Positions 29,641-41,450 of a DNA stretch of 64,000 bases are shown one piece after another; position 1 is the first letter of the stretch, and each line of letters starts with the position of its first letter. Both the position numbers and the translations under genes were made by a program. Below the pieces are notes generated by a model. That model saw only the letters and a list, made by a program, of their open reading frames with translations. It was not told the DNA's origin and did not search any database. The stretch is taken from positions 124,001-188,000 of the forward strand of contig NZ_FCOI02000013.1 of assembly GCF_001544795.2 (NCBI RefSeq). Reading direction: 5' to 3'. The stretch comes from Caballeronia temeraria. GTDB taxonomy: Bacteria > Pseudomonadota > Gammaproteobacteria > Burkholderiales > Burkholderiaceae.

Positions 29641-29651
29641 CTGAATGTCGT

Positions 29652-29888: not shown

Positions 29889-30302
29889 TCATTTATTTGA
29901 CATAACATAAATTCTTGCACTGTGCCCGCCTTCCCCCGTAGTGCCCGTATTACCAGATGCCTGCGCCTGAGACGTGGGGGTTACCGCCGCCGACAAGCCA
30001 ACCGCGCACACTATCGACGCCTTCGCGATAACCCCCGCCGCTTTTCCCCAAATGGACTCCCAGACAGCGCGCGCGTGCTCGTCTTTGCTGCGCTCGAACT
30101 GAGAAGCGGCGATAACCTCTATCGGCTCAATGCCAAGAGCCTCCGCAATCCGCGCGCACGTCAATTCGTCCGGAGCGGAACGGCCAACGCGCCACGAACT
30201 GACCGCCGCACGCGTCACGCCTAGCGCCTTCGCGGCGGCGTAGTCGGACGGAAGTTCGAGTTTTTCCCGAACTTCGTCCAAGTATTGAACAGTCGATTTC
30301 AC
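29889..30302 (-). CDS. Membrane-anchored Cro/CI-type regulator (DUF3693-like)
   Basis: A 137-residue putative lysogeny regulator. Helix-turn-helix at about 20-42 (SDYAAAKALGVTRAAVSSWR), then AEALGIEPIEVIAASQFER and ARAVWESIWGKAAG, then a hydrophobic segment (92-108) and a polar tail. This arrangement resembles the DUF3693 proteins of Xanthomonas-type filamentous phages that also integrate at dif. A TTG at 30320 extends the frame, but GTG at 30302 has GGGGGAA just before it. The last codons lie in attL, so integration determines the C-terminus. Probably represses the divergent replication operon. Confidence 0.75.
   Translation of the reverse strand: MKSTVQYLDEVREKLELPSDYAAAKALGVTRAAVSSWRVGRSAPDELTCARIAEALGIEPIEVIAASQFERSKDEHARAVWESIWGKAAGVIAKASIVCAVGLSAAVTPTSQAQASGNTGTTGEGGHSARIYVMSNK
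29895..29922. repeat. attL: dif-like XerC/XerD site, left border
   Basis: Arms read ATTTGACATAA (29895-29905), centre CATAAA, then TTCTTGCACTG (29912-29922). The first arm is the reverse complement of the classical XerD half-site TTATGTTAAAT with one change. The 17 bp core TTGACATAACATAAATT (29897-29913) recurs exactly at the right border. The last codons and stop of the regulator gene lie across it. Confidence 0.75.
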
Positions 30303-30405
30303 ACTTCCCCCGTTTGTCAAGCGATCTCAAACCCGAATGTACGTCAAGCGTCAACAACGCACAACGTACTGCGCGCTTGACTAGTATTGCGCGCTTGACG
30401 TATTG
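30303..30405. promoter_or_regulatory. Divergent control region with four CGCTTGA repeats
   Basis: Between the regulator and the rightward early genes. TCAAGCG occurs at 30317-30323 and 30344-30350, and its complement CGCTTGA at 30374-30380 and 30392-30398; the last two lie in 11-base copies GCGCGCTTGAC. TTGAC in these copies could serve as -35 hexamers. The likely operator set for the HTH regulator. Confidence 0.55.
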
Positions 30406-30514
30406 TTCCGTTCGTCGGGCCGCACAAACGGGCTGAACCCCCCCGTGGCGACTGATCCTCGCCTTTAGGCGGTCCGACATTCCACACATGCAGGGGTTCA
30501 ACCGGGGGGCTTAC

Positions 30515-30643
30515 ATGCGTCACTCATCGTTACAAATTCAACGGTCTTCACTCGGCGGTTTCGCAGTCCTAAGCGGCTACGCCAAGCGCGCGCGCGTTCG
30601 CGCTGCTGTGCGTCGGGTCATTGATTGGGTGGTGATCGCATGA
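30515..30643 (+). CDS. Small basic prophage protein
   Basis: A 42-residue reading frame, Arg-rich in the middle (YAKRARVRAAVRRVIDWVV). It is the first rightward frame after the control region, with GGGGGG about 6 bases upstream, and overlaps the next start (GCATGA). No known family; real but small genes of this sort are common at this position. Existence is plausible, function unknown. Confidence 0.4.
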   Translation: MRHSSLQIQRSSLGGFAVLSGYAKRARVRAAVRRVIDWVVIA

Positions 30644-30768
30644 CTGAGGCTCTTTTCTTCGTGGCGGGCGCGGTTTTCACCTTCTTTGCGGTCGGCGTCG
30701 GCGTGCTCGGCGCGCTGGCCTACACGGGGATGATCGATGAAAACGGAACAGCAACCCGAAAGCTGTGA
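30640..30768 (+). CDS. Small single-helix membrane protein, prophage early region
   Basis: A 42-residue frame starting in an ATGA overlap with the preceding one. One hydrophobic helix (LFFVAGAVFTFFAVGVGVLG) followed by a short polar tail. No family recognised. Confidence 0.5.
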   Translation: MTEALFFVAGAVFTFFAVGVGVLGALAYTGMIDENGTATRKL

Positions 30769-31150
30769 GGACGTTTCGCATGCAGTGGTGCCCGGCTCAA
30801 TAGGTCGCGCTCTACTGTGCAGCGTGCCATGGGCACCGCGCGCAACGCCCGCCAGTGACAAGGCAAGGGCCGAAGCGATGACAGCGTTAAACAGAATTCT
30901 TTCGAAGTACCGCGAGCGGCCACGAAGCGCGCCGGTTAGCAAAGCGGATTTTCAACAGGCGCGCGAAAACTTTTGGAGTAAAGGCAATGCAACCTTGGGA
31001 TTCGATTCTGGTGCTCGCTACGGCGCAAAGCCCCTACGCGGGCACGGCGGGCAGCATCACGGCAGTGACGAAGGGCGCGGACGGCTCGCTCATCAGCGTG
31101 ACGGCGCGCATGGACAAGGACGGGACCGAAGAAACGTTCCCGGTCGCTGA
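30737..31150 (+). CDS. Doubtful prophage reading frame
   Basis: Open frame of 137 residues. The N-terminal 85 residues (for example KADFQQARENFWSKG) look protein-like, but the last 50 are rich in Gly, His and Arg and read like a shadow of the 60-residue gene at 30987, which has a ribosome site. Either an overlapping gene or a spurious frame; no homology recognised. Confidence 0.25.
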   Translation: MKTEQQPESCEDVSHAVVPGSIGRALLCSVPWAPRATPASDKARAEAMTALNRILSKYRERPRSAPVSKADFQQARENFWSKGNATLGFDSGARYGAKPLRGHGGQHHGSDEGRGRLAHQRDGAHGQGRDRRNVPGR

Positions 31151-31169
31151 AGTGCAGCGCTTGGGCTAA
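30987..31169 (+). CDS. Small prophage protein of unknown function
   Basis: A 60-residue beta-rich frame (DSILVLATAQSPYAGTAGSI, EETFPVAEVQRLG). GGAG lies 11 bases upstream. It is four bases from the next gene and in the same direction. Similar in size to the following KOW-like protein, perhaps an accessory of replication. Confidence 0.6.
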   Translation: MQPWDSILVLATAQSPYAGTAGSITAVTKGADGSLISVTARMDKDGTEETFPVAEVQRLG

Positions 31170-31172
31170 ATC

Positions 31173-31394
31173 ATGCTCATCAACACGTTCCGCGAAGGTG
31201 AGCGCGTCATGGTGACGGCAAAAGATGACTTCTACGCTTACATCGACGGCTGGCGCGGTCGTGTTGGCTCGTTCGAAGGCATCCCCGGCGGGCATGTGCG
31301 TGTCGAAGTGCCGGACGAAGGCGTGACGAAGCTTTTCATCGTGCCGGTGGATCAAGTCGTGCGCTGCGGTGAGCGGCTGGTGGTGGTGCGCTGA
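31173..31394 (+). CDS. Small beta-barrel (KOW/SH3-like) prophage protein
   Basis: A 73-residue frame with FREGERVMVTAKDDF, GWRGRVGSFEGIPGGHVRVEV and VDQVVRCGERLVVV. The pattern of short strands around GRVGSF resembles KOW/SH3-type nucleic-acid or protein-binding barrels. Its stop overlaps the start of the replication gene (TGATG), so the two are probably co-translated. Function unknown. Confidence 0.65.
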   Translation: MLINTFREGERVMVTAKDDFYAYIDGWRGRVGSFEGIPGGHVRVEVPDEGVTKLFIVPVDQVVRCGERLVVVR

Positions 31395-33370
31395 TGATCC
31401 GCGAATCAAACGAAGCTTGGGCCGTTCGCCAAGTTGTCGACCTTCCCCCGCGCTGGCGCGGGCGGCTGCTCGGCAACTGGCGCGCGGCCTGCGCTTCGTT
31501 TGATCGCTCGAAAGTGACGGGTGAGGGTGACGCGCTGAGGCGCGCGAATGCCGGTTTGTTGATGGCGCTCGCGAGTCTGAGCACGGCACCTTTGGCGCTC
31601 GATGCGTCGGATATCGACGTGTGCGCGGCGGCGGAAAAGTACGCGGAGCAATGCCGCAAGACGGCAGAGGAAACGCAGCATATCGGGCGCGACGCGACGC
31701 GCGCGGAGCTGGAGCGTTTCTGTATTACGGCGGGCATCAACGCGCCGGGCGCGGACATGGAGCAAGAACCGGCCATCCTGCGCATGCAATGCCACTTGTG
31801 GTGGCGTCGGCAACTGCGTCGCGCCATGTCGCGCGCCGTCGAAGGATCGGCCATCGGCCTCGGCTACGTCCACAAGGGCGGCGATTGCTACGTGTCCGAC
31901 GAGTCGGTGATGCACCGCCTACAGCAAAACGCGCGCAACGCGGAAATGCTCGAATCGACCATCGCGCGCAATGAACTAGGGCAGGAATTCACGCTGGCGG
32001 AACTCGCGGCGAAGTCGCCCGCGAATAAGTCGGTGCGGCGCGCGGAACTGATGACGCGCATCAACGGGTTTGAGCGTATCGCCATCGACATGAAGCACGC
32101 GGGCGTGTTCTTCACGCTCACGGCACCGTCGCGCATGCACGCGTACCGGACCATCAACGGCAAGCCCGTGCGCAATCGCAAATATGACGGCACCAAGCCC
32201 AATGAGGCGCAAGCGCATCACACGAAAACGTGGGCGCGCATCCGTGCGGCGCTCGCGCGTCGCGGGGTGAGGATTTACGGGTTTCGCATTGCCGAACCGA
32301 ATCACGATGGCACGCCGCATTGGCATGTGCTGGTTTTCTGCAAGCCCGATGAACTCGCGATCCTTAAGAGCACGGTCTATAAGTACGCGCTCGCCGTCGA
32401 TGGTGACGAAGCGGGCGCGCGCAAGCATCGCGTGGACTGGAAGCCGATGGACCCGGCCAAGGGCACGGCGGCGGGCTACATCGCGAAGTACGTCGCGAAA
32501 AACATCGACGGCTATCGGCTCGATAAGGACATGTATGGCAACGATGCAATCCAAACGTCGCAGCGCGTCGAGGCGTGGGCGACACGTTGGCGCATTCGAC
32601 AGTTTCAGCAGATCGGCGGGCCTCCGGTTACGGTCTGGCGTGAATTGCGCCGCGTTCAAAGCGTACCGGCTGACGCTCCGGGATTTGTCGTCTCGGCTCA
32701 CAACGCCGTCAACAAAATCGCCGTTATTGAAGGGCGTGAAAACGCGTCCGTCGCGTGGGATAGGTATGTGGCGGCGCAAGGTGGTGTGTTCTGCGGACGC
32801 GGTTATCGCGTGCGTCTTGCGACGGTCGCGGCTGAGGGCGCGACGCGCTATGGCGAAGAGCGCGCGCCCAAGGTAATCGGCATCACGTTCAACGAGGAAT
32901 ACAAGGTGCGCGACGCGCGGGGCAACTGGACCGACGTGCGCGAAATGCAAACCATCGTGGAGAGCAAGAGGTTCGAATGGGAAATCCTGCGTCCGGCAAG
33001 TTCCAACGCTTTCGCTGTGTCGTATGCGGGCAGCGATTCGACACCTACGACTGTCCGCGATGCGGAGGGTTTTTCGGGTTTCGAGCGCGCGCAGCGCGCG
33101 TCTTGGACCTGTGTCAATAACTGTACGGAGTCGGGGGAATTCAAGCCTGAGGGCATCCCGACAACCTTTGGGCGGTTGTCGGAAGCGGCTTATGAGGCGT
33201 GTTCCGGTGCGGTGGTGGCGGCATTTAACGAATGGGTGAGGCGGAATGGACGGGAAGGTGGCGGAATTGAAAGCGCTGGCGGAGCAGGCACGGGAGGAAG
33301 TCAGGCAGCTTCCGCCGTTCGTCCGGATGGCCGGGCAAAAACAGATGGCATTGCTTCAAAACATCATTGA
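31394..33370 (+). CDS. Rolling-circle replication initiation protein
   Basis: A 658-residue HUH endonuclease that would nick the origin and start rolling-circle replication. Motif 2 is PHWHVLVFC (H309, H311). Motif 3 is GYIAKYVAKN with Y362 and Y366, the two-tyrosine layout of the phiX174 gpA/PM2 P12 superfamily. Motif 1 is probably FFTLTAPSRMHA (about 239-250). The N-terminal 230 residues are helical; the C-terminal 250 are variable. Its 3' end contains a nested 47-residue gene. A rolling-circle initiator together with a jelly-roll capsid fits corticoviruses. Confidence 0.87.
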   Translation: MIRESNEAWAVRQVVDLPPRWRGRLLGNWRAACASFDRSKVTGEGDALRRANAGLLMALASLSTAPLALDASDIDVCAAAEKYAEQCRKTAEETQHIGRDATRAELERFCITAGINAPGADMEQEPAILRMQCHLWWRRQLRRAMSRAVEGSAIGLGYVHKGGDCYVSDESVMHRLQQNARNAEMLESTIARNELGQEFTLAELAAKSPANKSVRRAELMTRINGFERIAIDMKHAGVFFTLTAPSRMHAYRTINGKPVRNRKYDGTKPNEAQAHHTKTWARIRAALARRGVRIYGFRIAEPNHDGTPHWHVLVFCKPDELAILKSTVYKYALAVDGDEAGARKHRVDWKPMDPAKGTAAGYIAKYVAKNIDGYRLDKDMYGNDAIQTSQRVEAWATRWRIRQFQQIGGPPVTVWRELRRVQSVPADAPGFVVSAHNAVNKIAVIEGRENASVAWDRYVAAQGGVFCGRGYRVRLATVAAEGATRYGEERAPKVIGITFNEEYKVRDARGNWTDVREMQTIVESKRFEWEILRPASSNAFAVSYAGSDSTPTTVRDAEGFSGFERAQRASWTCVNNCTESGEFKPEGIPTTFGRLSEAAYEACSGAVVAAFNEWVRRNGREGGGIESAGGAGTGGSQAASAVRPDGRAKTDGIASKHH

Positions 33371-33389
33371 AAAAATCGAGGCTCTATGA
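33246..33389 (+). CDS. Small nested prophage protein
   Basis: A 47-residue helical frame (KVAELKALAEQAREEVRQLP, LQNIIEKIEAL) lying mostly inside the 3' end of the replication gene in another frame. GAGG lies about 5 bases before its ATG, and its stop overlaps the next start (ATGA). The coupling to the zinc-ribbon gene makes it likely to be real. Function unknown. Confidence 0.5.
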   Translation: MDGKVAELKALAEQAREEVRQLPPFVRMAGQKQMALLQNIIEKIEAL

Positions 33390-33688
33390 AAACGCGCGCA
33401 AAAAAAACGGTCATCGGCACCATCAAGTGCCACTGCTGCGAGCGGGACATTCCCGCCAAGGAAAACGAGCATGGCACGCTCGATGTTTCGTGCCAGTGGT
33501 GCGAAATGCCGGTCTATGCGAAGAAGGGCACCGACGCGCACAAGCGCCTGTCGGCGCGCGTCGTCCGTTTCCCGGTGCCGCACGATGCGACGCCCGCGAG
33601 CGTGGCGGAGCCGTTCATACCGCCTTCGCCGGAAAAGCCCGCCGCGCGTGCCGCGCGCGGTGTGTTTGACGTATTCACGGGAGCCTAA
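33386..33688 (+). CDS. Zinc-ribbon prophage protein
   Basis: A 100-residue protein with two Cys pairs, CHCC (residues 15-18) and CQWC (36-39), forming a probable zinc ribbon, then a Pro/Ala-rich tail. A basic N-terminus (MKTRAKKT) fits nucleic-acid binding. It starts in an ATGA overlap. Could be a transcription factor for the late operon (PM2 has small Zn-finger regulators), which is an inference. Confidence 0.68.
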   Translation: MKTRAKKTVIGTIKCHCCERDIPAKENEHGTLDVSCQWCEMPVYAKKGTDAHKRLSARVVRFPVPHDATPASVAEPFIPPSPEKPAARAARGVFDVFTGA

Positions 33689-33690
33689 GC

Positions 33691-34227
33691 ATGGGCGATA
33701 TGGCGGAAGCGCAAGCAATGGACGCAATGCCGGGCCTTGATTCGCTCGGCGGCATGGCGGCGGGCATCGACGCGGAAGCGGCGGGCGCGCTCAATCCGGA
33801 AATGTCCGGTGCGATGCCAGGGCAACCGGTCCCGACCGGCCCGGACTACGAGCGCGGCGCGCGCGGCATCGTGGACATGACGCGCGCGATGATCGGCGGC
33901 TATGCGCCGGGCGCGGAGTGGGACGAAGCAACGAGCGGACGCATGGCGGCATCGCTCGCGCCCGTGTTCGAAAAATACGGGTGGGACATGGAAGCGGCTA
34001 TGCCGTGCGAACTGGTCGCGCTGGTGGTGTGCGGCCCGGTGCTCTACCAGTCGGCGCGCGCCGTGGCGCTCAAGATCAAACAGGACCGCTACGCGCTGGA
34101 AAACGCGCGGCCCGGCATGGCGGACCCTAACACGGTGAAGGGCGCGGAGCGGGATTCTGCGCCGGCCGATTCGGCGGAGGCGCTCGCGGCGGCGGTGCGC
34201 AACGCGAAAGTCTTTCCGGACATGTGA
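33691..34227 (+). CDS. Prophage protein with putative membrane segment
   Basis: A 178-residue protein. The N-terminal 55 residues are rich in Ala, Gly and Met; then a helical part (GARGIVDMTRAMIGGY, VFEKYGWDMEAAMP) and a hydrophobic segment ELVALVVCGPVLYQSARAVAL before a basic helix. It overlaps the ATPase start (TGATG). Position next to the ATPase suggests a virion or packaging role; no homologue recognised. Confidence 0.62.
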   Translation: MGDMAEAQAMDAMPGLDSLGGMAAGIDAEAAGALNPEMSGAMPGQPVPTGPDYERGARGIVDMTRAMIGGYAPGAEWDEATSGRMAASLAPVFEKYGWDMEAAMPCELVALVVCGPVLYQSARAVALKIKQDRYALENARPGMADPNTVKGAERDSAPADSAEALAAAVRNAKVFPDM

Positions 34228-34883
34228 TGGTGACGCGCGCAAAGAAAGCGGCGCCAGAAAAAGCCGCGCCCGCCTATGGCGTCGAAGCGAAGGCGCATAT
34301 TGAGGCGGTGCTCGGCGCGTCCGGCTCGGGCAAGTCGAGTTACGTTAAGCGCCTGATGGAGCGGGCGCGGCCCGCGCGGCTGATCGTGTTCGATCCTGAG
34401 GGCGAATGGTCCGCCTTCGGCAAGGCAACGAGCAACGTCGCGGACGTGCTCGCGGGTTTCCGGGCCGCTGGCACCGATGGCGCGTGCCGGGTGGTGTTTG
34501 TGCCGTCGCCGGTGCCGGAAATCGCCGTACGGCAGTTTGACGCGGTGTGCCGGATCGCGTTTCACGCGGAGCGCCTGACCTTCATTGTCGATGAACTCAA
34601 AAGCGTTACCACGCCGTCCCGGTCGCCGGTCGGCTGGGGCATGCTCACCGGGCGCGGGCGCAAGCGCGGGATTGTGATGTACGGCCTCTCGCAACGCCCG
34701 GCCAGCATCGACAAAGACTTTCTAGGCAACTGCAACTATGTCCGCTCGGGGCGGCTCACCTATGACGAGGACGTGCGCACGGTCGCCAAGGTGCTACGCG
34801 TGCCACAAGATGACGTGGCAAGCCTGCCTGACCTCGGCTGGATACGGCGCGACATGGCCACGGGGCAGACTGATCGCGGGTAG
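34227..34883 (+). CDS. Packaging ATPase (PM2 P9-like, FtsK/A32 type)
   Basis: A 218-residue P-loop ATPase thought to drive genome packaging into the preformed capsid. Walker A is GASGSGKS (30-37), Walker B LTFIVDEL (117-124), and YGLSQRPASIDKDFLGN (from 152) fits the conserved region after it in A32-like packaging ATPases. It has about the size of PM2 P9. A GTG three bases upstream is an alternative start; ATG at 34227 overlaps the previous stop. Filamentous-phage Zot proteins also have a P-loop, but usually with a membrane helix, absent here. Confidence 0.83.
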   Translation: MVTRAKKAAPEKAAPAYGVEAKAHIEAVLGASGSGKSSYVKRLMERARPARLIVFDPEGEWSAFGKATSNVADVLAGFRAAGTDGACRVVFVPSPVPEIAVRQFDAVCRIAFHAERLTFIVDELKSVTTPSRSPVGWGMLTGRGRKRGIVMYGLSQRPASIDKDFLGNCNYVRSGRLTYDEDVRTVAKVLRVPQDDVASLPDLGWIRRDMATGQTDRG

Positions 34884-34910
34884 TGCGATCGCGGCGCGGA
34901 GCGTTACGAA

Positions 34911-35126
34911 ATGGGAAGACAACGAAAGTACTACTCCAACGCGGAGCGGCAGCGCGCGTATCGGGCACGAGCCGCGCGGACGCGTGACATAGAGCGCGAA
35001 TATGTGAAGGAAAAGCGCGAGCGCGAAAAGAGGGCGGTACAGGATCGTCTATTAGGACGCGATCTAGTAGAACCCCGCTTCGGCGGGGTTTTTTTATGGC
35101 TTGGCGCGGCGCGCGGGTGTGGCTAG
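34911..35126 (+). CDS. Small highly basic helical protein
   Basis: Open frame of 71 residues. The first 50 are strongly charged (ERQRAYRARAARTRDIEREY, VKEKREREKRAV) and look like a real DNA-binding or coiled-coil peptide. The frame then runs through the terminator at 35071-35095, so the final 20 residues (RFGGVFLWLGAARGCG) may not be translated in all transcripts. Start 27 bases after the ATPase. Confidence 0.42.
   Translation: MGRQRKYYSNAERQRAYRARAARTRDIEREYVKEKREREKRAVQDRLLGRDLVEPRFGGVFLWLGAARGCG
35071..35095 (+). terminator. Rho-independent terminator after the ATPase genes
   Basis: AACCCCGC, TTCG loop, GCGGGGTT, then TTTTT. A textbook hairpin with a tetraloop. Separates the early/ATPase transcript from the capsid operon. 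Confidence 0.9.
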
Positions 35127-35220: not shown

Positions 35221-35302
35221 GATTCGCCTTTTCAGGGGAGGGCGGCGACACTCCGAACCATTCAAACGGGCCGCATGGTGCGGCGTCTATCGGAGTCGAA
35301 CC

Positions 35303-35428
35303 ATGAACGCAAAAGCATTGCTCAAGGCCTATCTGGCCTATCTCGCCTTCAACGCAGTGACGAAGATCGTCGTGCGTCCGGTCGCCACGTCGCTGAACGT
35401 GCCGCTGATCACCACGATCGTTTCCTAA
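35303..35428 (+). CDS. Small prophage protein preceding the capsid gene
   Basis: A 41-residue frame (ALLKAYLAYLAFNAVTKIVV then PLITTIVS) with an amphipathic to hydrophobic helix. It ends 14 bases before the capsid start and opens the structural operon. Probably a minor virion or membrane protein; no family known to me. Confidence 0.55.
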   Translation: MNAKALLKAYLAYLAFNAVTKIVVRPVATSLNVPLITTIVS

Positions 35429-35442
35429 AGGAGGGCGCGTCA

Positions 35443-36237
35443 ATGCTGCTCGTTAAAAACACGCCTTTCACGAACGTTGTCGCCTCGGGCGTCGCCACGG
35501 TGAACCTGCCTATCGGCATGTCGTACAACAAGATCATTCTCGCGCTCGGCGGCACGACCTTTACGCCGTCGATGATCACCAACATCAACCTGAAGGTGAA
35601 CGGCAAGATCATCTACAACGCGATTGGCTCGCGTCTGTCGCTGATCAACGCGTACCGTCAGGTGGTGGGCAGCGCAACCTGCCTCACGCTCGATTTCACC
35701 GAGCCGCGCGCCAAGTCGATGATCGAACAGTACGTGGGCAACATCAACACGGCCTCGGGCGTGTCGTCGGTGACCATCGAAGTGACCATTGCGGGCGCAA
35801 CGGCCCCGACGCTGGACAGCTATTCCGAACTGGGCCCGCCCGCCGCGCTCGGCGTGATCGCGAAGCACATTCCCTTTACGGCCTCGTTCGCTGGCTCGGG
35901 CAAGTTCCCGATGAAGCTGATCGATATCACGAACCGCGGCGGCATCATCAAGCGCGTCCACTTCGCGCACGGCGGCAACCTGTCGCAGCTCGAAGTCAAG
36001 AAAAACGGCATCGTCATCTGGGACAACATCCCGACCGCGATCAACACGAGTTGGCAGGCGGAGTACGCCAAGACCGCGCAGACCAACCTGTACACGTATG
36101 ACCCGTGTGCGGACAACAACTACGCCAACGGTGTGAAGACGGCAGACGCAACCGCGCTCGAATTCAACCCGACCTTCACGGCGGCGGATACGGTCACGGC
36201 GGTGGTTGAAGTGCTGGACGTGCTCGGCAACATGTAA
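35443..36237 (+). CDS. Major capsid protein, PM2 P2-like (double jelly-roll)
   Basis: A 264-residue protein, close to PM2 P2 (269 residues). The N-terminal part has the P2-family pattern: GVATVNLPIGMSYNKIIL, then NINLKVNGKIIYNAIG, then SLINAYRQV and TCLTLDFTE. The second half has LDSYSELGPPAALGVIAKHI and a further set of strands, consistent with two jelly rolls. AAAGGAGG lies 9 bases before ATG 35443, and a strong terminator follows, as usual for a highly expressed capsid gene. The frame is open upstream to 35275 without features. Capsid call is confident at family level; the fold is from family knowledge. Confidence 0.85.
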   Translation: MLLVKNTPFTNVVASGVATVNLPIGMSYNKIILALGGTTFTPSMITNINLKVNGKIIYNAIGSRLSLINAYRQVVGSATCLTLDFTEPRAKSMIEQYVGNINTASGVSSVTIEVTIAGATAPTLDSYSELGPPAALGVIAKHIPFTASFAGSGKFPMKLIDITNRGGIIKRVHFAHGGNLSQLEVKKNGIVIWDNIPTAINTSWQAEYAKTAQTNLYTYDPCADNNYANGVKTADATALEFNPTFTAADTVTAVVEVLDVLGNM

Positions 36238-36263
36238 CGGCTCAGGGTGGGAGTGCAGCGGCC

Positions 36264-36303
36264 CGGCCCGATTGAATTCGATGCGTCGGGCCGCTCTTTT
36301 TTT
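36264..36303 (+). terminator. Terminator after the capsid gene
   Basis: CGGCCCGA (36264-36271) pairs with TCGGGCCG (36286-36293), followed by CTCTTTTTTT. Leaky termination here would set capsid above the minor virion proteins. Confidence 0.85.
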
Positions 36304-36320
36304 AACCATCGGGGAATTAC

Positions 36321-36704
36321 ATGGACGGCTTTGACCTTTCCTCGCTCGGTCTCGACACGAGCAACCAGTACGGCTTTTCCATCGGCCCGCAATCGGACGG
36401 CACCTACAACGTGCCATCGACGGCGGTCGCGGTCACGGGATCGGACACGGGCGGCGCTGGCTACAACTACGCGCCGGGCGTGTTCAATCTGCTCAATAAC
36501 GGCCTCTCGGCTTTCACGTCGATCTACAACAATCAGCAAAGTCTGGACTACAAGCGCTACGAGGCCACGCAAGCGGGGCTGGTCGCGCAAGGTCAGGCGG
36601 CGGGCGCACTGGCGACGGCGCAACTGTCGGCGGTGAACTCAAACAAGATGCTGATGATCCTCGGCGCAATCGCCGTGGTGATGCTCGCGATCCACAAGGG
36701 ATAA
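36321..36704 (+). CDS. Prophage structural protein with C-terminal membrane helix
   Basis: A 127-residue protein: Gly/Ser/Thr/Asn-rich N-terminal half (SIGPQSDGTYNVPSTAVAV), helical middle (YNNQQSLDYKRYEATQAGL) and a C-terminal hydrophobic helix MLMILGAIAVVMLAIHKG. This tail-anchor pattern recurs in the next two similar proteins (36708 and 37465). Probable internal-membrane virion protein. Confidence 0.68.
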   Translation: MDGFDLSSLGLDTSNQYGFSIGPQSDGTYNVPSTAVAVTGSDTGGAGYNYAPGVFNLLNNGLSAFTSIYNNQQSLDYKRYEATQAGLVAQGQAAGALATAQLSAVNSNKMLMILGAIAVVMLAIHKG

Positions 36705-36707
36705 GCC

Positions 36708-37052
36708 ATGAACGGCACGACCGGCAATATCGCAACGGGCGTCGCCATGTCGAACCCGTACAGCGCGGCGGCAATGGCAGCAATGCAAATGTCGTCGGCG
36801 CTGTTCGCCAGTCCGACCGGCCCGCAAATGTCGAGCGCGGGCGGCTTCGATCCGTTCACGGTCGATAACTCGGGGTGGTCCGTCAACTTCGGCAGCGGCA
36901 GCGCGAGCGCGACGGCGAACCCCGTTTCGAATCTCGCGCAAGGGCTGGCGAACGCGGCCAGCGGCGCGGCGGGCGGCATCAACCTGAACAACCCGTTTGT
37001 GCTGCTCGGCCTCGCGGCCATCGTCATCGTCATCGTGAAGCACGGCAAATGA
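36708..37052 (+). CDS. Prophage structural protein with C-terminal membrane helix
   Basis: A 114-residue protein rich in Ala, Ser, Asn and Gly, ending in PFVLLGLAAIVIVIVKHGK. The layout is the same as the preceding gene (polar body, then tail helix, then basic end). Three bases separate them, and the stop overlaps the next start (ATGA). Confidence 0.68.
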   Translation: MNGTTGNIATGVAMSNPYSAAAMAAMQMSSALFASPTGPQMSSAGGFDPFTVDNSGWSVNFGSGSASATANPVSNLAQGLANAASGAAGGINLNNPFVLLGLAAIVIVIVKHGK

Positions 37053-37468
37053 TCCACATTCGACCCGAACCGGTTACGGACGCGGTACGCGATGAAGTCG
37101 CGGCGGCGTTCGATGCCAACCCGCTTCAGCGTGCCAAGACGGACACGAGCGCGGGCATGGTGGACGCGGTGCGGTGTCTCGATAACGCGGTGTTTTGCCG
37201 GGTGTTCGCGAGCGGTGTGCCGGTGGCGTTTTTCGCGCTGCGCATCGAACAGAAGGGCACGCGGCGTGAAGCGGAAGTGACCATTGCGCACGGTCGCGCG
37301 GCGTTCGATCTGACGGCTGAAATTCTGCCGATGATCGAGCGCGCGGCGGCGGACCTCGGCGCGCATGGACTCACGGTCGTGACGCGGCGCGGCGGGCTGG
37401 TTAAAAAATTGAAGTCGGCGGGCTACGGCACGGCGGCGGTGCGACTGAGAAAGGAACTCGCGCGATGA
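37049..37468 (+). CDS. GNAT-like phage protein
   Basis: A 139-residue alpha/beta protein. VAFFALRIEQKGTRREAEVTI, then an ILPMIERAAADLGAHGLTVVT helix-strand pair, then a RRGGLVKKLKSAGYG segment resemble the C-terminal half of GNAT acetyltransferases seen in many phage genomes. A clear acetyl-CoA pyrophosphate loop is not obvious. The start at 37049 overlaps the preceding stop; the frame is open further upstream in the shadow of gene 36708. It sits among structural genes, so a modifying or structural role is possible. Confidence 0.6.
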   Translation: MIHIRPEPVTDAVRDEVAAAFDANPLQRAKTDTSAGMVDAVRCLDNAVFCRVFASGVPVAFFALRIEQKGTRREAEVTIAHGRAAFDLTAEILPMIERAAADLGAHGLTVVTRRGGLVKKLKSAGYGTAAVRLRKELAR

Positions 37469-38055
37469 TTCGCAACCCTCGGCAATTGCATTTGATGCGG
37501 ATGGGCCTTCCGGCCACGCCCGCTAATCGCTCGGATTCGTCGTCGTCGTCCGACTCCACGACGAACAACTACGCCGACAAGCGCAACGCGGTGCAAGGCG
37601 GCGTCGGCGTGTCGGGCGACAACAACATGGTGTTCAACTCGTCCACCACGACCGATTACGGCGCGATTCAAAACGCGCTCAATGCGATGGTGGGCGCGAC
37701 GCAAGCGGCGACCTACAACAACTCGGTGGTGAGCGCGGGCGCGATCCAAGGCAACACGGACGTGGCGAAAGCGGCCATCAACGGCAACTCGGGCGTCGCA
37801 TCGACGGCGATCACAAGCACCGTCGCGGCGTCGAACCATCTAGAGGACGTGGGGCTGTCGATGCTACAGGCCAATACCGCGCTCGCGAATTCGCTGATGG
37901 GCGGCGTCCAGCAAAGCACGCAAGCGGTCACGGGCATCGCGTCGCAACTCGCGCAAACGCAGATTGCCTCGCAAAACGACAATCGCTATCTGATCGCGGC
38001 GGGTCTCGCGGTCGTCTGCATCGTCGGCGTGATGGCGTTTAACCATAAGGCATAA
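37465..38055 (+). CDS. Prophage structural protein with C-terminal membrane helix
   Basis: A 196-residue protein. Ser/Asp-rich N-terminus (ANRSDSSSSSDSTTNNYADK), a long Ala/Asn/Thr/Gln-rich helical body (ALNAMVGATQAATYNNSVV) and a tail helix YLIAAGLAVVCIVGVMAFNH. The third member of the tail-anchored set. It may span the space between capsid and membrane. Confidence 0.68.
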   Translation: MIRNPRQLHLMRMGLPATPANRSDSSSSSDSTTNNYADKRNAVQGGVGVSGDNNMVFNSSTTTDYGAIQNALNAMVGATQAATYNNSVVSAGAIQGNTDVAKAAINGNSGVASTAITSTVAASNHLEDVGLSMLQANTALANSLMGGVQQSTQAVTGIASQLAQTQIASQNDNRYLIAAGLAVVCIVGVMAFNHKA

Positions 38056-38060
38056 CGATC

Positions 38061-38834
38061 ATGCAGATTTTCGATATCACGGTTCCGGCTAATTCGGCGT
38101 TCGTCGTGCACGCGCCGGGCAAGTACATCAAGTATCTGTCGGGCAACAACGGCGGCGGCGATACACGGCTGGCGGTGACGCCCGGCATGCAGGGCAGCAC
38201 GAAAATTACGCTGATTCCGGGACAGGCCTATCGCGTGTCCGACGAAGCGAAAAAGCCGGATTCGTGGACGCTCTCGAACTATGCCAACGGCGCGGCGATT
38301 ATCGGTCAAGTGGTCGTCGGTGACGGCAAGATAGATGACAACAGCATTGCGGGCACCGTGCAGGTCATCGACGGCGGCAAGGCGCGCACGCTGAACAATA
38401 GCGCCTTCACGTGTTGGGGCGGTGGTTCATCCGTCGCGTCGCAGTGGTGCCGCGTCCAACTCTGGAACCCGGCAAACAATCCGAATCGGGTGGTTCTCGA
38501 AACGATATTCAGCCTCGCGGCGAGCGGCAACACGGCGGCGATTCTGACCGGTGGGAGTACGCAACTAGGAACGCTCCTGCAAGTCGGGCAACCGAAGCGC
38601 GTGGGCGGAACGCCTAGCCTAGCGGGCCTCTACACAGATAACACGGCGGTGCAGCCTAGCGCCTATCCATCGCTCGCCCTTTTCGGCGCGCTGAATGTAT
38701 CGACGGTCGCGGCGGGATATAGCCCGAAAGAGCCGTTTGTCATTCCGCCGGGATACGGGTTGATGCTGGCGGCCAACGCGGCGGCAACAAGTATTTCCGC
38801 AGACTTCGAGTGGTACGAAGAGCCGAACGTATGA
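38061..38834 (+). CDS. Beta-rich virion protein, candidate vertex/spike or minor capsid
   Basis: A 257-residue protein without hydrophobic helix. Short strands such as FDITVPANSAFVVHAPGKYI, TKITLIPGQAYRVS and SKEPF-like VIPPGYGLMLAANAA are typical of jelly-roll or spike domains. Only three Trp/Cys-rich positions (FTCWGGGSSVASQWC) stand out. Six bases after the previous gene and overlapping the lysozyme start. Candidate for the PM2 P1-like spike role, by elimination only. Confidence 0.55.
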   Translation: MQIFDITVPANSAFVVHAPGKYIKYLSGNNGGGDTRLAVTPGMQGSTKITLIPGQAYRVSDEAKKPDSWTLSNYANGAAIIGQVVVGDGKIDDNSIAGTVQVIDGGKARTLNNSAFTCWGGGSSVASQWCRVQLWNPANNPNRVVLETIFSLAASGNTAAILTGGSTQLGTLLQVGQPKRVGGTPSLAGLYTDNTAVQPSAYPSLALFGALNVSTVAAGYSPKEPFVIPPGYGLMLAANAAATSISADFEWYEEPNV

Positions 38835-39472
38835 AAACGCCCGGTGCGCTCTACCTCATTGCGGCGGGCACGCTCGCGGCAGCGGCCTACGTGTGGTGGG
38901 CCAATGGTGGCGTGCCGGACCCGATGCAGAATCCCGACGATTCAATTGATCCGCTCGCGCCGCTCGGTGACGCGATGGACGAAGCAACCGCAACGGTGTG
39001 GAACATGATTAGCCCGAACCCGGCAGCAAGCATGCAACCCAGTGACGCGCTGGTATCGCGCCTGAAGCAAAGCGAAGGACTGCGCCTGACGCGTTACAAC
39101 CTCGGCGACGGCGGCTGGACGATTGGCTACGGCCACTACTCCACGAACCTCGCGGACATTCCCGCAACCTGCACGCAAGCGCAAGCCGATGCGTGGTTTG
39201 CGTCGGACCTGCAAGCGAAGGCGGTCAAGTGGGTGCAGCTTTACGTGTCGGTGCCGCTCACGCAAAACCAGTTTGATGCGCTCGTGGACGTCGCGTTCAA
39301 CCTCTCGCCGCGCGGCTTCAAGCGCTTTGCCGATGCGGTCAACGCGGGACAGGGCATTGACGACATCGCGCAAGCGTCGGTGTCGTGGGTCTCGCCCGCA
39401 TTGCAGAACGGCATCCAGAATCGGCGGAACTCCGAAATGGCGATGTTCGATAACGGGGATTACACAGCATGA
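38831..39472 (+). CDS. GH24 lysozyme with N-terminal signal-anchor
   Basis: Muramidase of 213 residues that cleaves peptidoglycan. The T4-type catalytic motif is complete: E82 in KQSEGLRLTRYN, D93 (LGDGG) and T97 (WTIGYGH), with the E-to-T spacing of 15 as in T4 lysozyme. Residues 6-24 (ALYLIAAGTLAAAAYVWWA) form a weakly hydrophobic helix, as in SAR endolysins or virion-membrane lysozymes. The start at 38831 overlaps the previous stop (ATGA). May serve entry, exit or both. Confidence 0.88.
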   Translation: MKTPGALYLIAAGTLAAAAYVWWANGGVPDPMQNPDDSIDPLAPLGDAMDEATATVWNMISPNPAASMQPSDALVSRLKQSEGLRLTRYNLGDGGWTIGYGHYSTNLADIPATCTQAQADAWFASDLQAKAVKWVQLYVSVPLTQNQFDALVDVAFNLSPRGFKRFADAVNAGQGIDDIAQASVSWVSPALQNGIQNRRNSEMAMFDNGDYTA

Positions 39473-39837
39473 AACTCGATAAAAGCGGCCTGTTGATGGT
39501 CGGCGCGGCGGCGGCGGTGCTGCTGCTGGTGGTGAAGAAAACGACGCCTTCGGGCACGCCCGCGAAAAGCGGACAAGCGGCCATCGGCTCGAACGCGGCT
39601 TCGTGGTTGTCGAACGCCATCAGCAACATGGGCGGCAACCCGGTCGCGACAACCAGCACGAACAGCCTTGGATCAACGATCGGCGGCCTGACGCTGTTCG
39701 GCAACGGCACCTTCGACGCGGGCGGAATCTATGTCGATCCCGGTCAGGTGACGGTCAACAACAACACCGGGCAGGTGACTGAATCGCCGTTCTCCGGCAT
39801 GTACAACGTGCTGTCCCCCGCTACCTACGGATTCTGA
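39469..39837 (+). CDS. Prophage membrane protein, N-terminal anchor
   Basis: A 122-residue protein: N-terminal helix (GLLMVGAAAAVLLLVV), Lys pair, then a polar Gly/Asn/Ser/Thr-rich body with repeated strands (GGIYVDPGQVTVNNNTGQV). It starts inside the lysozyme stop (ATGA). Likely a virion protein facing out of the internal membrane. Confidence 0.65.
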   Translation: MKLDKSGLLMVGAAAAVLLLVVKKTTPSGTPAKSGQAAIGSNAASWLSNAISNMGGNPVATTSTNSLGSTIGGLTLFGNGTFDAGGIYVDPGQVTVNNNTGQVTESPFSGMYNVLSPATYGF

Positions 39838-39839
39838 TC

Positions 39840-40115
39840 ATGAGCACAAAAGAATTTCTGTTCCTCGGCGCGGTGATCTACATCGGCTGGCGCTATCAGC
39901 GCTCGCACCAGTCGCGCAGCGCGGTCGATCAGGCGTATCTGCAAGACGCGCAGACCTTCGCGAGCATGGCGGGCAGCAACTTCACGCAAAGCAATTGGGA
40001 TCCGGTCAGCGGTCAACCCACCTACATGTGGGGCGCGACGCCCGTGGCGCTGCAAGGCGGGCTGTCGGTGCAAGCCAATAGCGGCGTCGGCTCAATTTTC
40101 GGGCACATCGCATGA
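39840..40115 (+). CDS. Prophage membrane protein, N-terminal anchor
   Basis: A 91-residue protein with a short N-terminal helix (FLFLGAVIYIGWRYQ) and a polar body with NWDPVSGQPTYMWGATPVAL. Two bases after the preceding gene and overlapping the next by four. Same layout as its neighbours. Confidence 0.62.
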   Translation: MSTKEFLFLGAVIYIGWRYQRSHQSRSAVDQAYLQDAQTFASMAGSNFTQSNWDPVSGQPTYMWGATPVALQGGLSVQANSGVGSIFGHIA

Positions 40116-40507
40116 AGCGCGCCGAACTCGCGATCCTCGCGGGCGTGGTGCTGCTCGTCGGCTATGCCGCGTACAAGGTGAAAACGGCCGGCAGCGCGCT
40201 GGCGAACAGCGCGGCGGCGGCGGCGTCGGCGGGCTGGAACCTCGCGAATTATCCGGTGCTGCCCGCGTCGATTCCGGGCGCGAGCGTCGGCAACGCGATT
40301 GTGTCGGCGCCCGCGTCGGCGCTCGATGCGCTCTCATTCGGGACCATCGGCGGCACCACAACGCCCGCGTCAAGCTGGTATGACGCGCTCAAGGCGGGGC
40401 CGCTCGGCGGGCTGGTGGGCATCGTCAGCGGCGAAGGCAACACGAACATTTTTGGACCGGCACCAAGCGCGGGGCTGGACTTTGGCAAAGGCGACAACTG
40501 GAACTAG
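40112..40507 (+). CDS. Prophage membrane protein, N-terminal anchor
   Basis: A 131-residue protein: helix AELAILAGVVLLVGYAAYKV, then an Ala/Ser/Gly/Pro-rich body ending GLDFGKGDNWN. Third of three consecutive N-anchored proteins. Function unknown; probable virion membrane protein. Confidence 0.62.
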   Translation: MKRAELAILAGVVLLVGYAAYKVKTAGSALANSAAAAASAGWNLANYPVLPASIPGASVGNAIVSAPASALDALSFGTIGGTTTPASSWYDALKAGPLGGLVGIVSGEGNTNIFGPAPSAGLDFGKGDNWN

Positions 40508-40519
40508 GGGAGAAAACCC

Positions 40520-40708
40520 ATGAAAGCATTTTTTGCACGCTTGCAAGAACCCTCCACGCATGCCGCGCTCGCGGGCCTCGCGGCCATCGCGGCACAAGGC
40601 GCGGTGAGTCTCGGCGCTGATCCGCATGTGGTGGGCGCGGTCGGCACGGCGGCGGCGGGCCTGTTTGGTCTGCTCGGCGTGCTGATGCCGGAAAAGGCGG
40701 GCGCGTAA
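40520..40708 (+). CDS. Small hydrophobic protein, holin-like
   Basis: A 62-residue protein with two hydrophobic helices (HAALAGLAAIAAQGAVSLGA and GAVGTAAAGLFGLLGVLMP) and a charged end. Size and layout fit a two-helix holin. AGGGGAGA lies upstream. Its stop overlaps the next start (TAATG). With the lysozyme upstream, a lysis role is reasonable. Confidence 0.55.
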   Translation: MKAFFARLQEPSTHAALAGLAAIAAQGAVSLGADPHVVGAVGTAAAGLFGLLGVLMPEKAGA

Positions 40709-40857
40709 TGGAATCCAGCCTGCTGATGAACGTCGGTGGAATGGTGCTCGCGGCGGGCGTCACGTATGGCGCGATCCGCGCGGACCTGAAAAACCTGCAT
40801 GAGCGGATTGCGCTGCTCGAAAAGATCGTTTTCAAACCTCTCACGAAGGGAGCCTGA
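40708..40857 (+). CDS. Small protein with helix and coiled coil, possible lysis partner
   Basis: A 49-residue frame: hydrophobic MNVGGMVLAAGVTYGAI followed by a heptad-like helix (DLKNLHERIALLEKIVF). Reminiscent of small holin partners or XhlA-like hemolysins. Overlaps the holin-like gene by one base. Confidence 0.5.
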   Translation: MESSLLMNVGGMVLAAGVTYGAIRADLKNLHERIALLEKIVFKPLTKGA

Positions 40858-40858
40858 C

Positions 40859-40957
40859 ATGGCCACGCGTAAGAAGGCGGCGCACAAGCCGCGCAAGAAG
40901 TCGCATCACAAGACCCCGGCACGCAGCAAGGTGACGGGCCGGTTCCTCAAGAAATAA
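40859..40957 (+). CDS. Very basic 32-residue peptide, possible genome-condensing protein
   Basis: A 32-residue frame in which 15 residues are Lys, Arg or His (TRKKAAHKPRKKSHHKTPAR). GGGAG lies 5 bases upstream; the gene begins one base after the preceding stop. Such composition suits neutralising packaged DNA. No homologue recognised. Confidence 0.55.
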   Translation: MATRKKAAHKPRKKSHHKTPARSKVTGRFLKK

Positions 40958-40968
40958 GGGAGAAAGAC

Positions 40969-41067
40969 ATGCCTAAGATCGAATGGAAGAGCGCGGCGAT
41001 TGGTGCCGTCGCTGTCTACGCGTTCCTGTGGTATCGCGCCAAAAAGGCGTCCACCACGTCGAGCTAA
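40969..41067 (+). CDS. Small single-helix protein, end of structural operon
   Basis: A 32-residue frame with one short hydrophobic helix (SAAIGAVAVYAFLWY) and a basic, Ser/Thr-rich end. GGGAGAAA lies upstream. Last rightward gene before the terminator at 41090. Confidence 0.52.
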   Translation: MPKIEWKSAAIGAVAVYAFLWYRAKKASTTSS

Positions 41068-41309
41068 AAGCCGAAGCGCTGAAGCAAGGACGCCCGCCGC
41101 GCGCGGGCGTTTTCTATGGTGGCGTCGAAGGTGCCCGCCAGTTTGGCGGCGGCGACTTTATCGGCGACCTGCCACGCGTGGACGTAGTGCAGGAAGGCGC
41201 GCTCGGACGAACAGTAGGCGGGCGCGACCGCTTCCACCCATTGCCGGACCTCATCGAGCGTCACGGGCACCTGTCCGAACAGATCGTGCTGAGGGTGGTG
41301 GCGGCGCAT
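41064..41309 (-). CDS. Leftward small prophage protein
   Basis: An 81-residue helical, soluble frame (LDEVRQWVEAVAPAYCSSER, YVHAWQVADKVAAAKLAG). GGAGC lies about 8 bases before its ATG on the minus strand. It reads leftward like the regulator at 29889-30302. In the circular viral form it would lie directly downstream of that regulator across the joined att site. Function unknown. Confidence 0.58.
   Translation of the reverse strand: MRRHHPQHDLFGQVPVTLDEVRQWVEAVAPAYCSSERAFLHYVHAWQVADKVAAAKLAGTFDATIENARARRASLLQRFGF
41090..41114 (+). terminator. Terminator of the structural operon
   Basis: ACGCCCGC (41090-41097) pairs with GCGGGCGT (41103-41110) and is followed by TTTTC. Lies 22 bases after the last rightward prophage gene, within the opposite-strand 81-residue gene. 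Confidence 0.7.
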
Positions 41310-41345
41310 AAAAAAAGCTCCGATCCCAATTTCTGGAAAAGGAGC
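41310..41345 (-). terminator. Weak leftward hairpin with T run before the 81-residue gene
   Basis: On the minus strand, GCTCC, a 19-base loop, GGAGC, then seven T directly before the ATG at 41309. It could end the regulator transcript in the circular form, yet its GGAG also serves as ribosome site for the 81-residue gene. The stem is only five pairs, so confidence is low. Confidence 0.4.
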
Positions 41346-41422
41346 ATTTGTGGTGCCTTAATCGGCGCTTAGGCGGCGAGGGGAAACCCGTATGCTTTCT
41401 CTGCCCGCCGGTTCCGGCGGAA

Positions 41423-41450
41423 AGTTGACATAACATAAATTATCGAAGTT
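41423..41450. repeat. attR: dif-like XerC/XerD site, right border
   Basis: Arms read AGTTGACATAA (41423-41433), centre CATAAA, then TTATCGAAGTT (41440-41450). The core TTGACATAACATAAATT (41425-41441) is identical to attL. The second arm resembles the XerC half-site more than the corresponding attL arm does, as expected if it is the chromosomal half. Confidence 0.75.

What the first reader, a model, noticed from the sequence alone, without database searches (positions are those of the whole stretch)
29895..41450. Corticovirus-like (PM2-like) tailless prophage in a Burkholderiaceae chromosome
Seen: one 11.5 kb block encodes a rolling-circle initiator (PHWHVLVFC; YIAKYVAKN), a P2-like capsid protein of 264 residues, a small P-loop ATPase, GH24 lysozyme and about ten small one-helix proteins, with no tail, portal, terminase or integrase gene. 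Known: PM2 of Pseudoalteromonas is a 10 kb icosahedral phage with internal membrane, and related prophages were reported mainly from aquatic bacteria. Inference: this is a terrestrial, plant-associated branch of PM2-like viruses, probably intact and inducible.
Basis: partly seen in the sequence, partly recalled or inferred. Interest (0 to 1): 0.88.

Follow-up and report, generated by a model that had tools for sequence, protein, structure and literature searches.

The report
Tailless prophage whose insertion trims repressor
This stretch is a small tailless (PM2-like) virus lying dormant in a soil-type bacterium's chromosome; it appears to enter through the cell's own chromosome-separation site, and in doing so to cut a tail off its own repressor, which may act as the switch for staying dormant.

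Summary
Window 29895-41450 is an 11.5-kb PM2-like (order Vinavirales) prophage: its capsid matches both Pfam domains of PM2 P2, the model's first PDB match is PM2 P2, PM2's gene order is kept, and no integrase was found. PM2-like prophages in Betaproteobacteria were already in print (2007, 2022), so the host range is not new.
New here: (1) the ends share a 17-bp repeat inside two dif-like sites; two same-genus genomes carry the empty dif; KOPS-like motifs change strand across the element. So it sits in a replicon's dif site, and host XerCD is the likely recombinase. Dif-like sites flank 27 of 30 elements examined (window included). (2) The left att lies inside the repressor gene. Joined in silico, the ends extend the repressor by a basic, ssrA-like tail (...FPLAA). 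This occurs in 11 of 27 elements: all 11 tails are basic, five end in -AA. Related repressors sit at dif in filamentous phages, where attP-in-regulator was reported. I propose that XerCD integration converts a tailed repressor into a tail-less one, as in mycobacteriophage BPs but with a host recombinase. Anatomy shown; function inferred.

The parts
29652..29728 (-). host tRNA-Val (gac), outside the element; not the integration target
   Evidence: ARAGORN; also beside the empty dif in L059 and L073
29895..29922 (-). attL: dif-like site CAGTGCAAGAA-TTTATG-TTATGTCAAAT (XerC arm degenerate, XerD arm canonical; outer XerD arm is host DNA)
   Evidence: the one exact TTATGTCAAAT in the 8.3-Mb genome (the backward-read control pattern also occurs once)
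29889..30320 (-). repressor: HTH, hydrophobic segment, 3' end lies in attL; prophage form ends ...ARIYVMSNK
   Evidence: PF01381 3.5e-8, phrog_638 7.9e-27
30625..31394 (+). three small early ORFs (47, 60, 73 aa); the last two lie where PM2 has orfs d and e
   Evidence: homologues of the 60- and 73-aa ORFs in 5 of 14 relatives, of the 47-aa ORF in none
31394..33370 (+). rolling-circle replication initiator (GPA type; PM2 gene XII position)
   Evidence: PF05840 1.1e-75, phrog_91 3.1e-153
33386..33688 (+). small Cys-motif protein in the place of PM2 P14
   Evidence: position; no Pfam match
33691..34227 (+). 178-aa protein in the place of PM2 gp h
   Evidence: position before the ATPase
34224..34883 (+). 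packaging ATPase (PM2 P9 position)
   Evidence: phrog_2666 1.6e-24; homologue in 14 of 14 relatives
35303..35428 (+). 41-aa hydrophobic protein in the place of PM2 P7
   Evidence: homologues in 5 of 14 relatives
35443..36237 (+). major capsid protein, double jelly roll
   Evidence: PF18628, PF25513; PDB 9t9v 9.6e-19 by sequence; Foldseek 2vvf 7.4e-19
36321..37052 (+). two small proteins with C-terminal hydrophobic segment (P3/P8/P10 region)
   Evidence: position; no Pfam match
37049..37468 (+). 139-aa protein in the place of the Vinavirales GNAT gene
   Evidence: homologues in 14 of 14 relatives; no Pfam match
37465..38055 (+). 196-aa protein with C-terminal hydrophobic segment
   Evidence: homologues in 13 of 14 relatives; no Pfam match
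38061..38834 (+). 257-aa protein in the place of the PM2 spike P1
   Evidence: position before the lysin; homologues in 9 of 14 relatives; no family match
38831..39472 (+). GH24 lysozyme with N-terminal hydrophobic segment
   Evidence: PF00959 1.4e-23
39469..41067 (+). late small ORFs (122, 91, 131, 62, 49, 32, 32 aa), hydrophobic or basic by eye
41064..41309 (-). 81-aa protein beside attR, co-oriented with the repressor in the circle; the place where PM2 and NO16 have DUF3653 genes
   Evidence: phrog_10187 5.2e-11; homologues in 5 of 14 relatives
41369..41433 (-). coding for the repressor tail that is in frame only when the ends are joined: TFRRNRRAEKAYGFPLAA, then stop
41423..41450 (-). attR: AACTTCGATAA-TTTATG-TTATGTCAACT, 27 of 28 bases of the reconstructed host dif (outer XerC arm is host DNA)

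Best explanation
A Vinavirales (PM2-like) temperate phage in which no integrase was found and which most likely uses the host's XerCD recombinases to enter a replicon's dif site. Its attP has one canonical arm plus centre (at its late end) and one degenerate arm (at its repressor end). Integration leaves a near-canonical dif at attR and a weak one at attL, so the replicon would keep dimer resolution and the prophage would be fairly stable. attP lies inside the repressor gene. In the excised circle the repressor should carry an 18-residue tail (basic segment, ssrA-like -LAA end) and be followed by the co-oriented 81-aa gene. Integration swaps that tail for two residues from host DNA and separates the downstream gene. 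Most likely the tailed form is unstable or inactive and the short form maintains lysogeny, so host recombination itself sets the switch. Shown: gene content, att sites, empty site, reading frames. Inferred: XerCD use, tail function, excision, induction.
For: Identity. Integration: 17-bp repeat TTGACATAACATAAATT, the only exact direct repeat over 10 bp between 29300-30400 and 40850-42000; dif arms on both sides; empty dif between tRNA-Val and the right-flank gene in G317 and G352; E. coli-type KOPS GGGNAGGG (motif recalled) 6+/0- left and 0+/3- right of the element; dif-like sites at both ends of 27 of 30 elements. Switch: repressor frame crosses att in 11 of 27; their tails hold 4-7 K/R in 12 codons (mean 5.2) against 1.5 and 2.2 in the other frames and 1.9 on the host side; in the 16 other elements no frame exceeds 4; five of 11 tails end in -AA against 15 of 492 background ORFs. 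Same PHROG family (phrog_638) in filamentous phage Cf2, whose recorded attP lies in that gene. Five further near-full-length repressor hits in Burkholderiaceae have a dif-like half-site at the 3' end; two were examined further and look filamentous.
Against: No circular form of this element was seen; the tail is a reconstruction. In 16 of 27 elements the repressor does not cross att (14 end before it; in L029 and L037 none was recognised); PM2's ends before its dif-like site and NO16's before its site, so the overlap is not needed for the lifestyle. Six of 11 tails do not end in -AA (one of these in -VA). Close relatives are not independent. In one search, 10 of 26 strong sites (the window among them, by a tie) had partners no better than the best random 28-mer. 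In the slightly shifted reading, L078 and L040 have another frame as basic as the repressor frame. Two circular metagenomic relatives have no dif-like site and a third none recognisable. Two of the five extra repressor hits carry a stop inside the match. The repressor tree does not resolve tailless from filamentous rows. In marine Vibrio, tailless prophages at dif regularly carry integrase genes (PMC11630473).
Confidence: 0.6

Rival explanations
1. PM2-like prophage integrated at dif by XerCD, but the attP-repressor overlap is incidental: dif merely supplies a stop codon and the extra tail of the circular form has no role.
For: Overlap absent in 16 of 27 elements, in PM2 and in NO16; open tails of about 18 codons are not rare in GC-rich DNA.
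Against: Most basic residues sit in the repressor frame in 11 of 11 and no frame is as basic in the 16 non-crossing elements as in most crossing ones. Eight of the 11 are read with ATG in the XerD arm: on the phage side the next codon is TCA in seven and TTA in one, never a stop; on the host side it is TAA in five of the eight (L028, L030, L039, L040, L091).
Confidence: 0.33
2. A decayed or domesticated remnant that can no longer excise.
For: No induction data; attL XerC arm is degenerate.
Against: The recognised ORFs are open; the degenerate arm lies at the end away from the late genes in 27 of 27; close relatives sit at dif-like sites in several genera.
Confidence: 0.15
3. A filamentous-phage or plasmid element rather than a tailless virus.
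For: Repressor and att arrangement are shared with inoviruses.
Against: P2-type capsid, packaging ATPase and PM2 gene order; no Zot match among the window proteins scanned.
Confidence: 0.01

Closest known systems
Pseudoalteromonas phage PM2 (Corticovirus)
   Same: P2 capsid, ATPase, RCR initiator position, gene order; a dif-like half-site just after its HTH gene orf c
   Different: repressor ends before the site; endolysin of another type in the record; DUF3653 gene where the window has the 81-aa gene; described as lytic (PMC1950889, PMC9966536)
Betaproteobacterial Vinavirales prophages (Krupovic and Bamford 2007 Ralstonia eutropha H16; Yutin 2022 clade D)
   Same: host group, phage-type lysozyme, core genes
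   Different: in the passages read, their integration mechanism is called unclear and no att-repressor overlap is described
Vibrio NO16 ('Asemoviridae') and Rhodobacter phage Jorvik
   Same: temperate tailless phages with dif-like att (PMC9966536, PMC10589892)
   Different: NO16's best-scoring site keeps the XerC arm and lies outside its repressor gene; in the passages read no repressor change is described
Filamentous phages XacF1/Cf1c/Cf2 and phiRSS0
   Same: attP inside an HTH regulator gene; XacF1 ORF may be split and phiRSS0 ORF13 truncated on XerCD integration (PMC4076744, PMC3816273); Cf2 regulator in the same PHROG family
   Different: ssDNA filamentous virions; function of the truncation only hypothesised there
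Mycobacteriophage BPs integration-dependent immunity
   Same: attP in the repressor; viral form longer with ssrA-like tag, prophage form short and active (PMC4557955)
   Different: phage-encoded integrase; repressor not tested for kinship here
TLCphi of Vibrio cholerae
   Same: attP with one degenerate arm (PMC4246890)
   Different: TLCphi keeps the XerC arm; the window element keeps the XerD arm

Membership tests
Vinavirales / PM2-like | P2-type double-jelly-roll capsid protein | tested here: met
Vinavirales / PM2-like | packaging ATPase upstream of the capsid gene | tested here: met
Vinavirales / PM2-like | P1-like spike protein | tested here: inconclusive
   257-aa protein in the right place, no family match; structure job never ran
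Vinavirales / PM2-like | capsid groups with known members in a tree | tested here: inconclusive
   window with Burkholderiaceae rows (starred); PM2, GXT1010, NO16 and autolykivirus in another set; root is midpoint only
Vinavirales / PM2-like | icosahedral virion with inner membrane, circular dsDNA | not testable with these tools
   needs particles
Integrative element exploiting Xer (IMEX) | no integrase in the element | tested here: met
   20 window proteins against Pfam. For relatives only partly tested: 10 of their larger unmatched ORFs gave none
Integrative element exploiting Xer (IMEX) | dif-like sites at both ends, empty dif in relatives | tested here: met
Integrative element exploiting Xer (IMEX) | integration depends on XerC and XerD | not testable with these tools
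   needs mutants
Integration-dependent immunity (BPs type) | attP inside the repressor ORF, integration shortens it | tested here: met
   in silico
Integration-dependent immunity (BPs type) | ssrA-like C-terminus on the viral form | tested here: inconclusive
   window ...FPLAA; 5 of 11 elements end in -AA
Integration-dependent immunity (BPs type) | short form stable and active, long form degraded | not testable with these tools
   needs protein assays
Integration-dependent immunity (BPs type) | phage-encoded integrase | tested here: not met
   none found; so it may work like BPs but is not filed as a member

The most novel reading that the evidence does not exclude
A lysis-lysogeny switch set by host XerCD recombination: integration at dif removes a basic, degron-like tail from the phage repressor and uncouples a downstream gene. 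It is a portable repressor-attP cassette shared by tailless double-jelly-roll phages and filamentous phages (two virus realms), and it moves between capsid lineages.
Probability: 0.45. Interest if true: 0.82.

Novelty: new variant of a known kind. Interest (0 to 1): 0.66.

Why it matters
Integration of most Vinavirales prophages was called unclear in 2022 (PMC9502842), and in marine Vibrio it was left inconclusive whether tailless phages at dif use host recombinases (PMC11630473). Here a set drawn mostly from Burkholderiales and their kin shows dif-like ends in 27 of 30 elements, with no integrase found in the window element, and in 11 of them a repressor whose end is rewritten by integration. 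If the tail controls stability, commitment to lysogeny would be decided by the cell's chromosome-dimer resolution machinery, and the same solution would serve viruses of two realms. It gives a direct test with two short tails on a reporter protein.

Tried and rejected
Rejected: tRNA-Val as target (it lies 166 bp outside attL and stands intact beside the empty dif). Rejected: L130, a circular contig, as direct proof of a read-through attP (its repressor runs on, but no dif-like site was recognised). L123 has a half-site in its repressor frame, but its circularity is not shown. L127/L128 are circular relatives without a dif-like site. First capsid scan of viral contigs with the single window protein found no relative. 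GNAT and spike labels rest on position only. Idea not supported: that the 81-aa gene is a DUF3653 protein (NO16 gene 7 matches DUF3653 at 2.2e-15, PM2 orf a at 2.5e-4, just under the cut-off; the window gene and L027, L028, L033, L035, L040 do not). That DUF3653 is the TLCphi Xer activation factor is recalled, not checked (paper not held). The dif-side IS-end repeat has no transposase among five ORFs tried. The 30 elements were chosen by me as those with both ends inside the fetched DNA; the three misses are L087 (one end only), L088, L109. Left out: L084, L111, L116, L123, L125, L126, L129 (contig cut or one end only), L118 (capsid not found by my profile), L127, L128, L130 (circular), and copies of the same contigs (L079-L083, L089, L090, L092, L110, L135). 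Of the 30 genomes hit, 13 whose match stops near residue 88-96 and which had no capsid hit were not examined.
Full report
WHAT IS THERE. The block encodes, left to right: a leftward HTH repressor, three small ORFs, a GPA-type rolling-circle initiator (PF05840, E 1.1e-75), a small Cys-motif protein, a 178-aa protein, a packaging ATPase, a 41-aa hydrophobic protein, the capsid protein, two small proteins, a 139-aa and a 196-aa protein, a 257-aa protein, a GH24 lysozyme, a run of small late ORFs, and a leftward 81-aa gene. The fetched PM2 record has the order HTH gene, d, e, XII, XIII, XIV, h, IX, VII, II, III, IV, VIII, j, I, V, VI, k, l. The window follows it closely, so several roles (P14, gp h, P7, spike) are assigned by place only.

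THE CAPSID. Pfam P2_N 3.4e-30 and P2_C 3.2e-38; PDB by sequence 9t9v 9.6e-19 and PM2 P2 2vvf 6.2e-5; 15 phage records of Vibrio and Pseudoalteromonas by tblastn, 25-29% identity. The AlphaFold model from 10 sequences is of middling confidence (mean pLDDT 65.7, pTM 0.51), yet Foldseek ranks PM2 P2 first (E 7.4e-19, TM 0.59), then STIV, PBCV-1 and PRD1 coats.

HOW WIDE. Genomes with a P2_C match, out of those searched: 15 of 398 in the family sample, 8 of 399 in the order sample, 4 of 369 in the class sample (these three each include the window's own), 4 of 144 in the genus of G392 and 7 of 65 in the genus of G358; the samples overlap. Named carriers from genome contigs (15 loci) include Paraburkholderia rhynchosiae, P. 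fungorum, P. saeva, Burkholderia stagnalis, Cupriavidus, a Ralstonia, Duganella, Noviherbaspirillum sp. Root189, Rhodocyclus and Andreprevotia.

INTEGRATION SITE. The longest direct repeat between 29300-30400 and 40850-42000 is 17 bp, the next 10 bp. It is the centre plus most of the XerD arm of two dif-like sites: attL CAGTGCAAGAA-TTTATG-TTATGTCAAAT and attR AACTTCGATAA-TTTATG-TTATGTCAACT. Taking the outer arms gives a host dif AACTTCGATAA-TTTATG-TTATGTCAAAT; attR differs from it at 1 base and attL at 5. The exact XerD arm occurs once in the 8.3-Mb genome, as does the backward-read control. Of 58 same-genus genomes (own included), 20 hold a site within 3 mismatches of that host dif. In two of them (L059 of G317, L073 of G352) the window's left flank with tRNA-Val and its right-flank gene (dhaK-like by eye, no family search) meet at that site, 120-210 bp apart by BLAST ends. 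On the 226,639-base contig, cumulative GC skew levels off at about the element and then falls, and GGGNAGGG runs 6+/0- on the left and 0+/3- on the right (9 of 9, two-sided 0.004). The element thus most likely occupies a terminus dif.

GENERALITY. Thirty integrated elements, the window included, had both ends within the DNA held; 27 have dif-like sites at both ends, the exceptions being L087 (one end only), L088 and L109. Two of the 27 have imperfect centres (L027 4 of 6, L085 5 of 6). As a control each of 26 strong sites was compared with about 60 random 28-mers of its own neighbourhood: in 16 of 26 the true partner beat all of them, in 10 it did not (four ties, the window among them; L124 and L136 were not in that call). 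Seventeen elements keep centre plus XerD arm (D-type), ten keep XerC arm plus centre (C-type). In all 27 the dif strand is opposite to the capsid gene in D-type and the same in C-type, so the degenerate arm always lies at the end away from the late genes, where the repressor is when recognised. PM2 itself has a D-type half-site after its HTH gene; NO16's best-scoring site is of C-type but weak. The TLCphi attP, as reviewed, keeps the XerC arm (PMC4246890), so the window's D-type attP differs from it.

THE REPRESSOR TAIL. The repressor ORF ends inside attL (...ARIYVMSNK). When the phage ends are joined at the centre, the same frame runs on to ...ARIYVMSTFRRNRRAEKAYGFPLAA. In 11 of 27 elements the repressor frame crosses att. 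Joined tails: window TFRRNRRAEKAYGFPLAA; L028 NRYRGRRAANCDRFHRVA; L030 SRKRYLRERTLSGLRMAA; L032 KSRKRRARDTVSTLAYAA; L078 SRRRRDVRTVSGLRLAA; L136 NRRRFRKTTVWDNALAA; L039 NKRRARRAANDGLFVVSI; L040 NRRRARQAANDGYFVVSI; L091, L086 and L117 have longer tails without -AA. The first 12 codons hold 4-7 Lys/Arg in all 11 (mean 5.2) against means of 1.5 and 2.2 in the other two frames and 1.9 on the host side; the repressor frame is the most basic in 11 of 11, though with a slightly shifted start L078 and L040 have a second frame as basic. In the 16 elements whose repressor does not cross att (14) or was not recognised (2), no frame of the corresponding DNA exceeds 4, which argues against a DNA motif near att as the cause. 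Of 492 long background ORFs (mechanical, 150 aa or more) 15 end in AA and 37 have 4 or more K/R in residues -18 to -7; 5 of 11 tails end in AA. These rows are related, so the nominal probability (1e-5) overstates the case; at least two repressor lineages (window group, L136) show it.

A SHARED CASSETTE. The window repressor and the regulator of filamentous phage Cf2 both match phrog_638 (7.9e-27; 1.1e-23). tblastn of the window repressor against phages gave 40 records, of which 20 were listed; the top rows are labelled inoviruses (WC36-1 2e-10, Cf2 5e-6). The Cf2 record marks attP inside that gene, and its circular-form tail is MSKRVRRLLR..., that of SMA9 KSRIRRIWAF...DEIAA. A profile of seven tailless repressors found matches in 30 of 398 Burkholderiaceae genomes. 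Its five further near-full-length hits (G026, G183, G226, two in G137; two of them with a stop inside) have a dif-like half-site at the 3' end. One carries Zot and Rep_trans, another a secretin, a TspB match and a G2P-like initiator, so both look filamentous; the other three were not typed. The joined tails of those two begin NRRRLWRWLQAA and KLISYIRAMLRA, the second only weakly basic. On the capsid tree the att-in-repressor label needs 6 changes, and 77 of 500 shuffles are as low. L028 and L136 repressors are sisters (100/98) though their capsids lie in different clades, so the cassette seems to move between capsid lineages. The deep part of the repressor tree is unresolved and has long branches.

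MECHANISM PROPOSED. During infection the circle makes a tailed repressor, predicted to be short-lived or inactive. XerCD integration into dif replaces the tail by a few residues or an immediate stop (ATG TAA in the host XerD arm of five relatives), giving the form that holds lysogeny. It also separates the repressor from the 81-aa gene, which in the circle lies downstream on the same strand. Only the anatomy is shown. The repressor made stable and active by loss of an ssrA-like tag is described for mycobacteriophage BPs (PMC4557955, passages); for filamentous phages truncation on integration was stated and a functional difference hypothesised (phiRSS0 ORF13 156 to 130 aa, PMC3816273, passages), or a split of the gene suggested (XacF1 ORF12, PMC4076744, passages).

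LITERATURE SEEN. Passages by term: PMC9502842 (also its section 3.2, part 1), PMC9966536, PMC1950889, PMC5894146, PMC4246890, PMC4076744, PMC4557955, PMC3816273, PMC11630473, PMC10589892, PMC9765430. Abstracts and outlines of PMC1950889 and PMC5894146. Searches bearing on novelty. None of the listings or passages read describes an att-repressor overlap in a tailless phage; the library holds open-licence papers only, and supplements were not read. Results that lower novelty: dif-like att was already reported for NO16 and Jorvik, a dif-like site was named in PM2 (PMC9966536), and betaproteobacterial PM2-like prophages were known.

VERDICT. Observation confirmed; identity about 0.97; integration at dif about 0.93; functional integration-dependent switch about 0.45.

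Noticed in passing
window 41442-41540; L051-L077; L027, L029, L030: An IS-end-like double repeat (...CCGGACATT...AGCC twice, ending in TACA or TGACA) abuts the XerC side of dif within a few bases in 19 of 27 rows by eye (two of them partial, one the window's own attR), as if some insertion sequence targets dif. No transposase among five nearby ORFs tried.
   Followed up: partly
G327:C379, G357:C221, G139:C47, G000:C39, each at 83-110: Four assemblies have a contig that starts exactly 82 bases before a dif-like site, each next to that IS-end-like repeat.
   Followed up: no
L035, L036 and four more in their cluster (L038, L085, L086, L091): In some relatives the replication gene is not GPA-type; L036 and L035 match Rep_1 (PF01446), fitting replication-module swaps; the other four were not scanned.
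   Followed up: partly
L036, L037, L039, L136 late regions: The roughly 13-kb relatives carry an extra 500-760-aa late gene; three of the four scanned match beta-helix, C1q or GDSL-lipase families, perhaps receptor-binding spikes.
   Followed up: no
L127, L128: Circular metagenomic relatives, L127 with a capsid very close to L035, show no dif-like site, and no repressor homologue was found: possible strictly lytic derivatives.
   Followed up: partly
L027, L031, L033, L034, L125: Of 16 repressors that end before att, these five end in -AA or -LA themselves (LRAA, PALA, TALA, FSAA, PRLA), again ssrA-like.
   Followed up: no
C13 contig of the window genome: Octamer GCAGGGCG runs 18+/1- left and 1+/11- right of the element, a possible host KOPS variant; picked from all octamers, so only a lead.
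   Followed up: no
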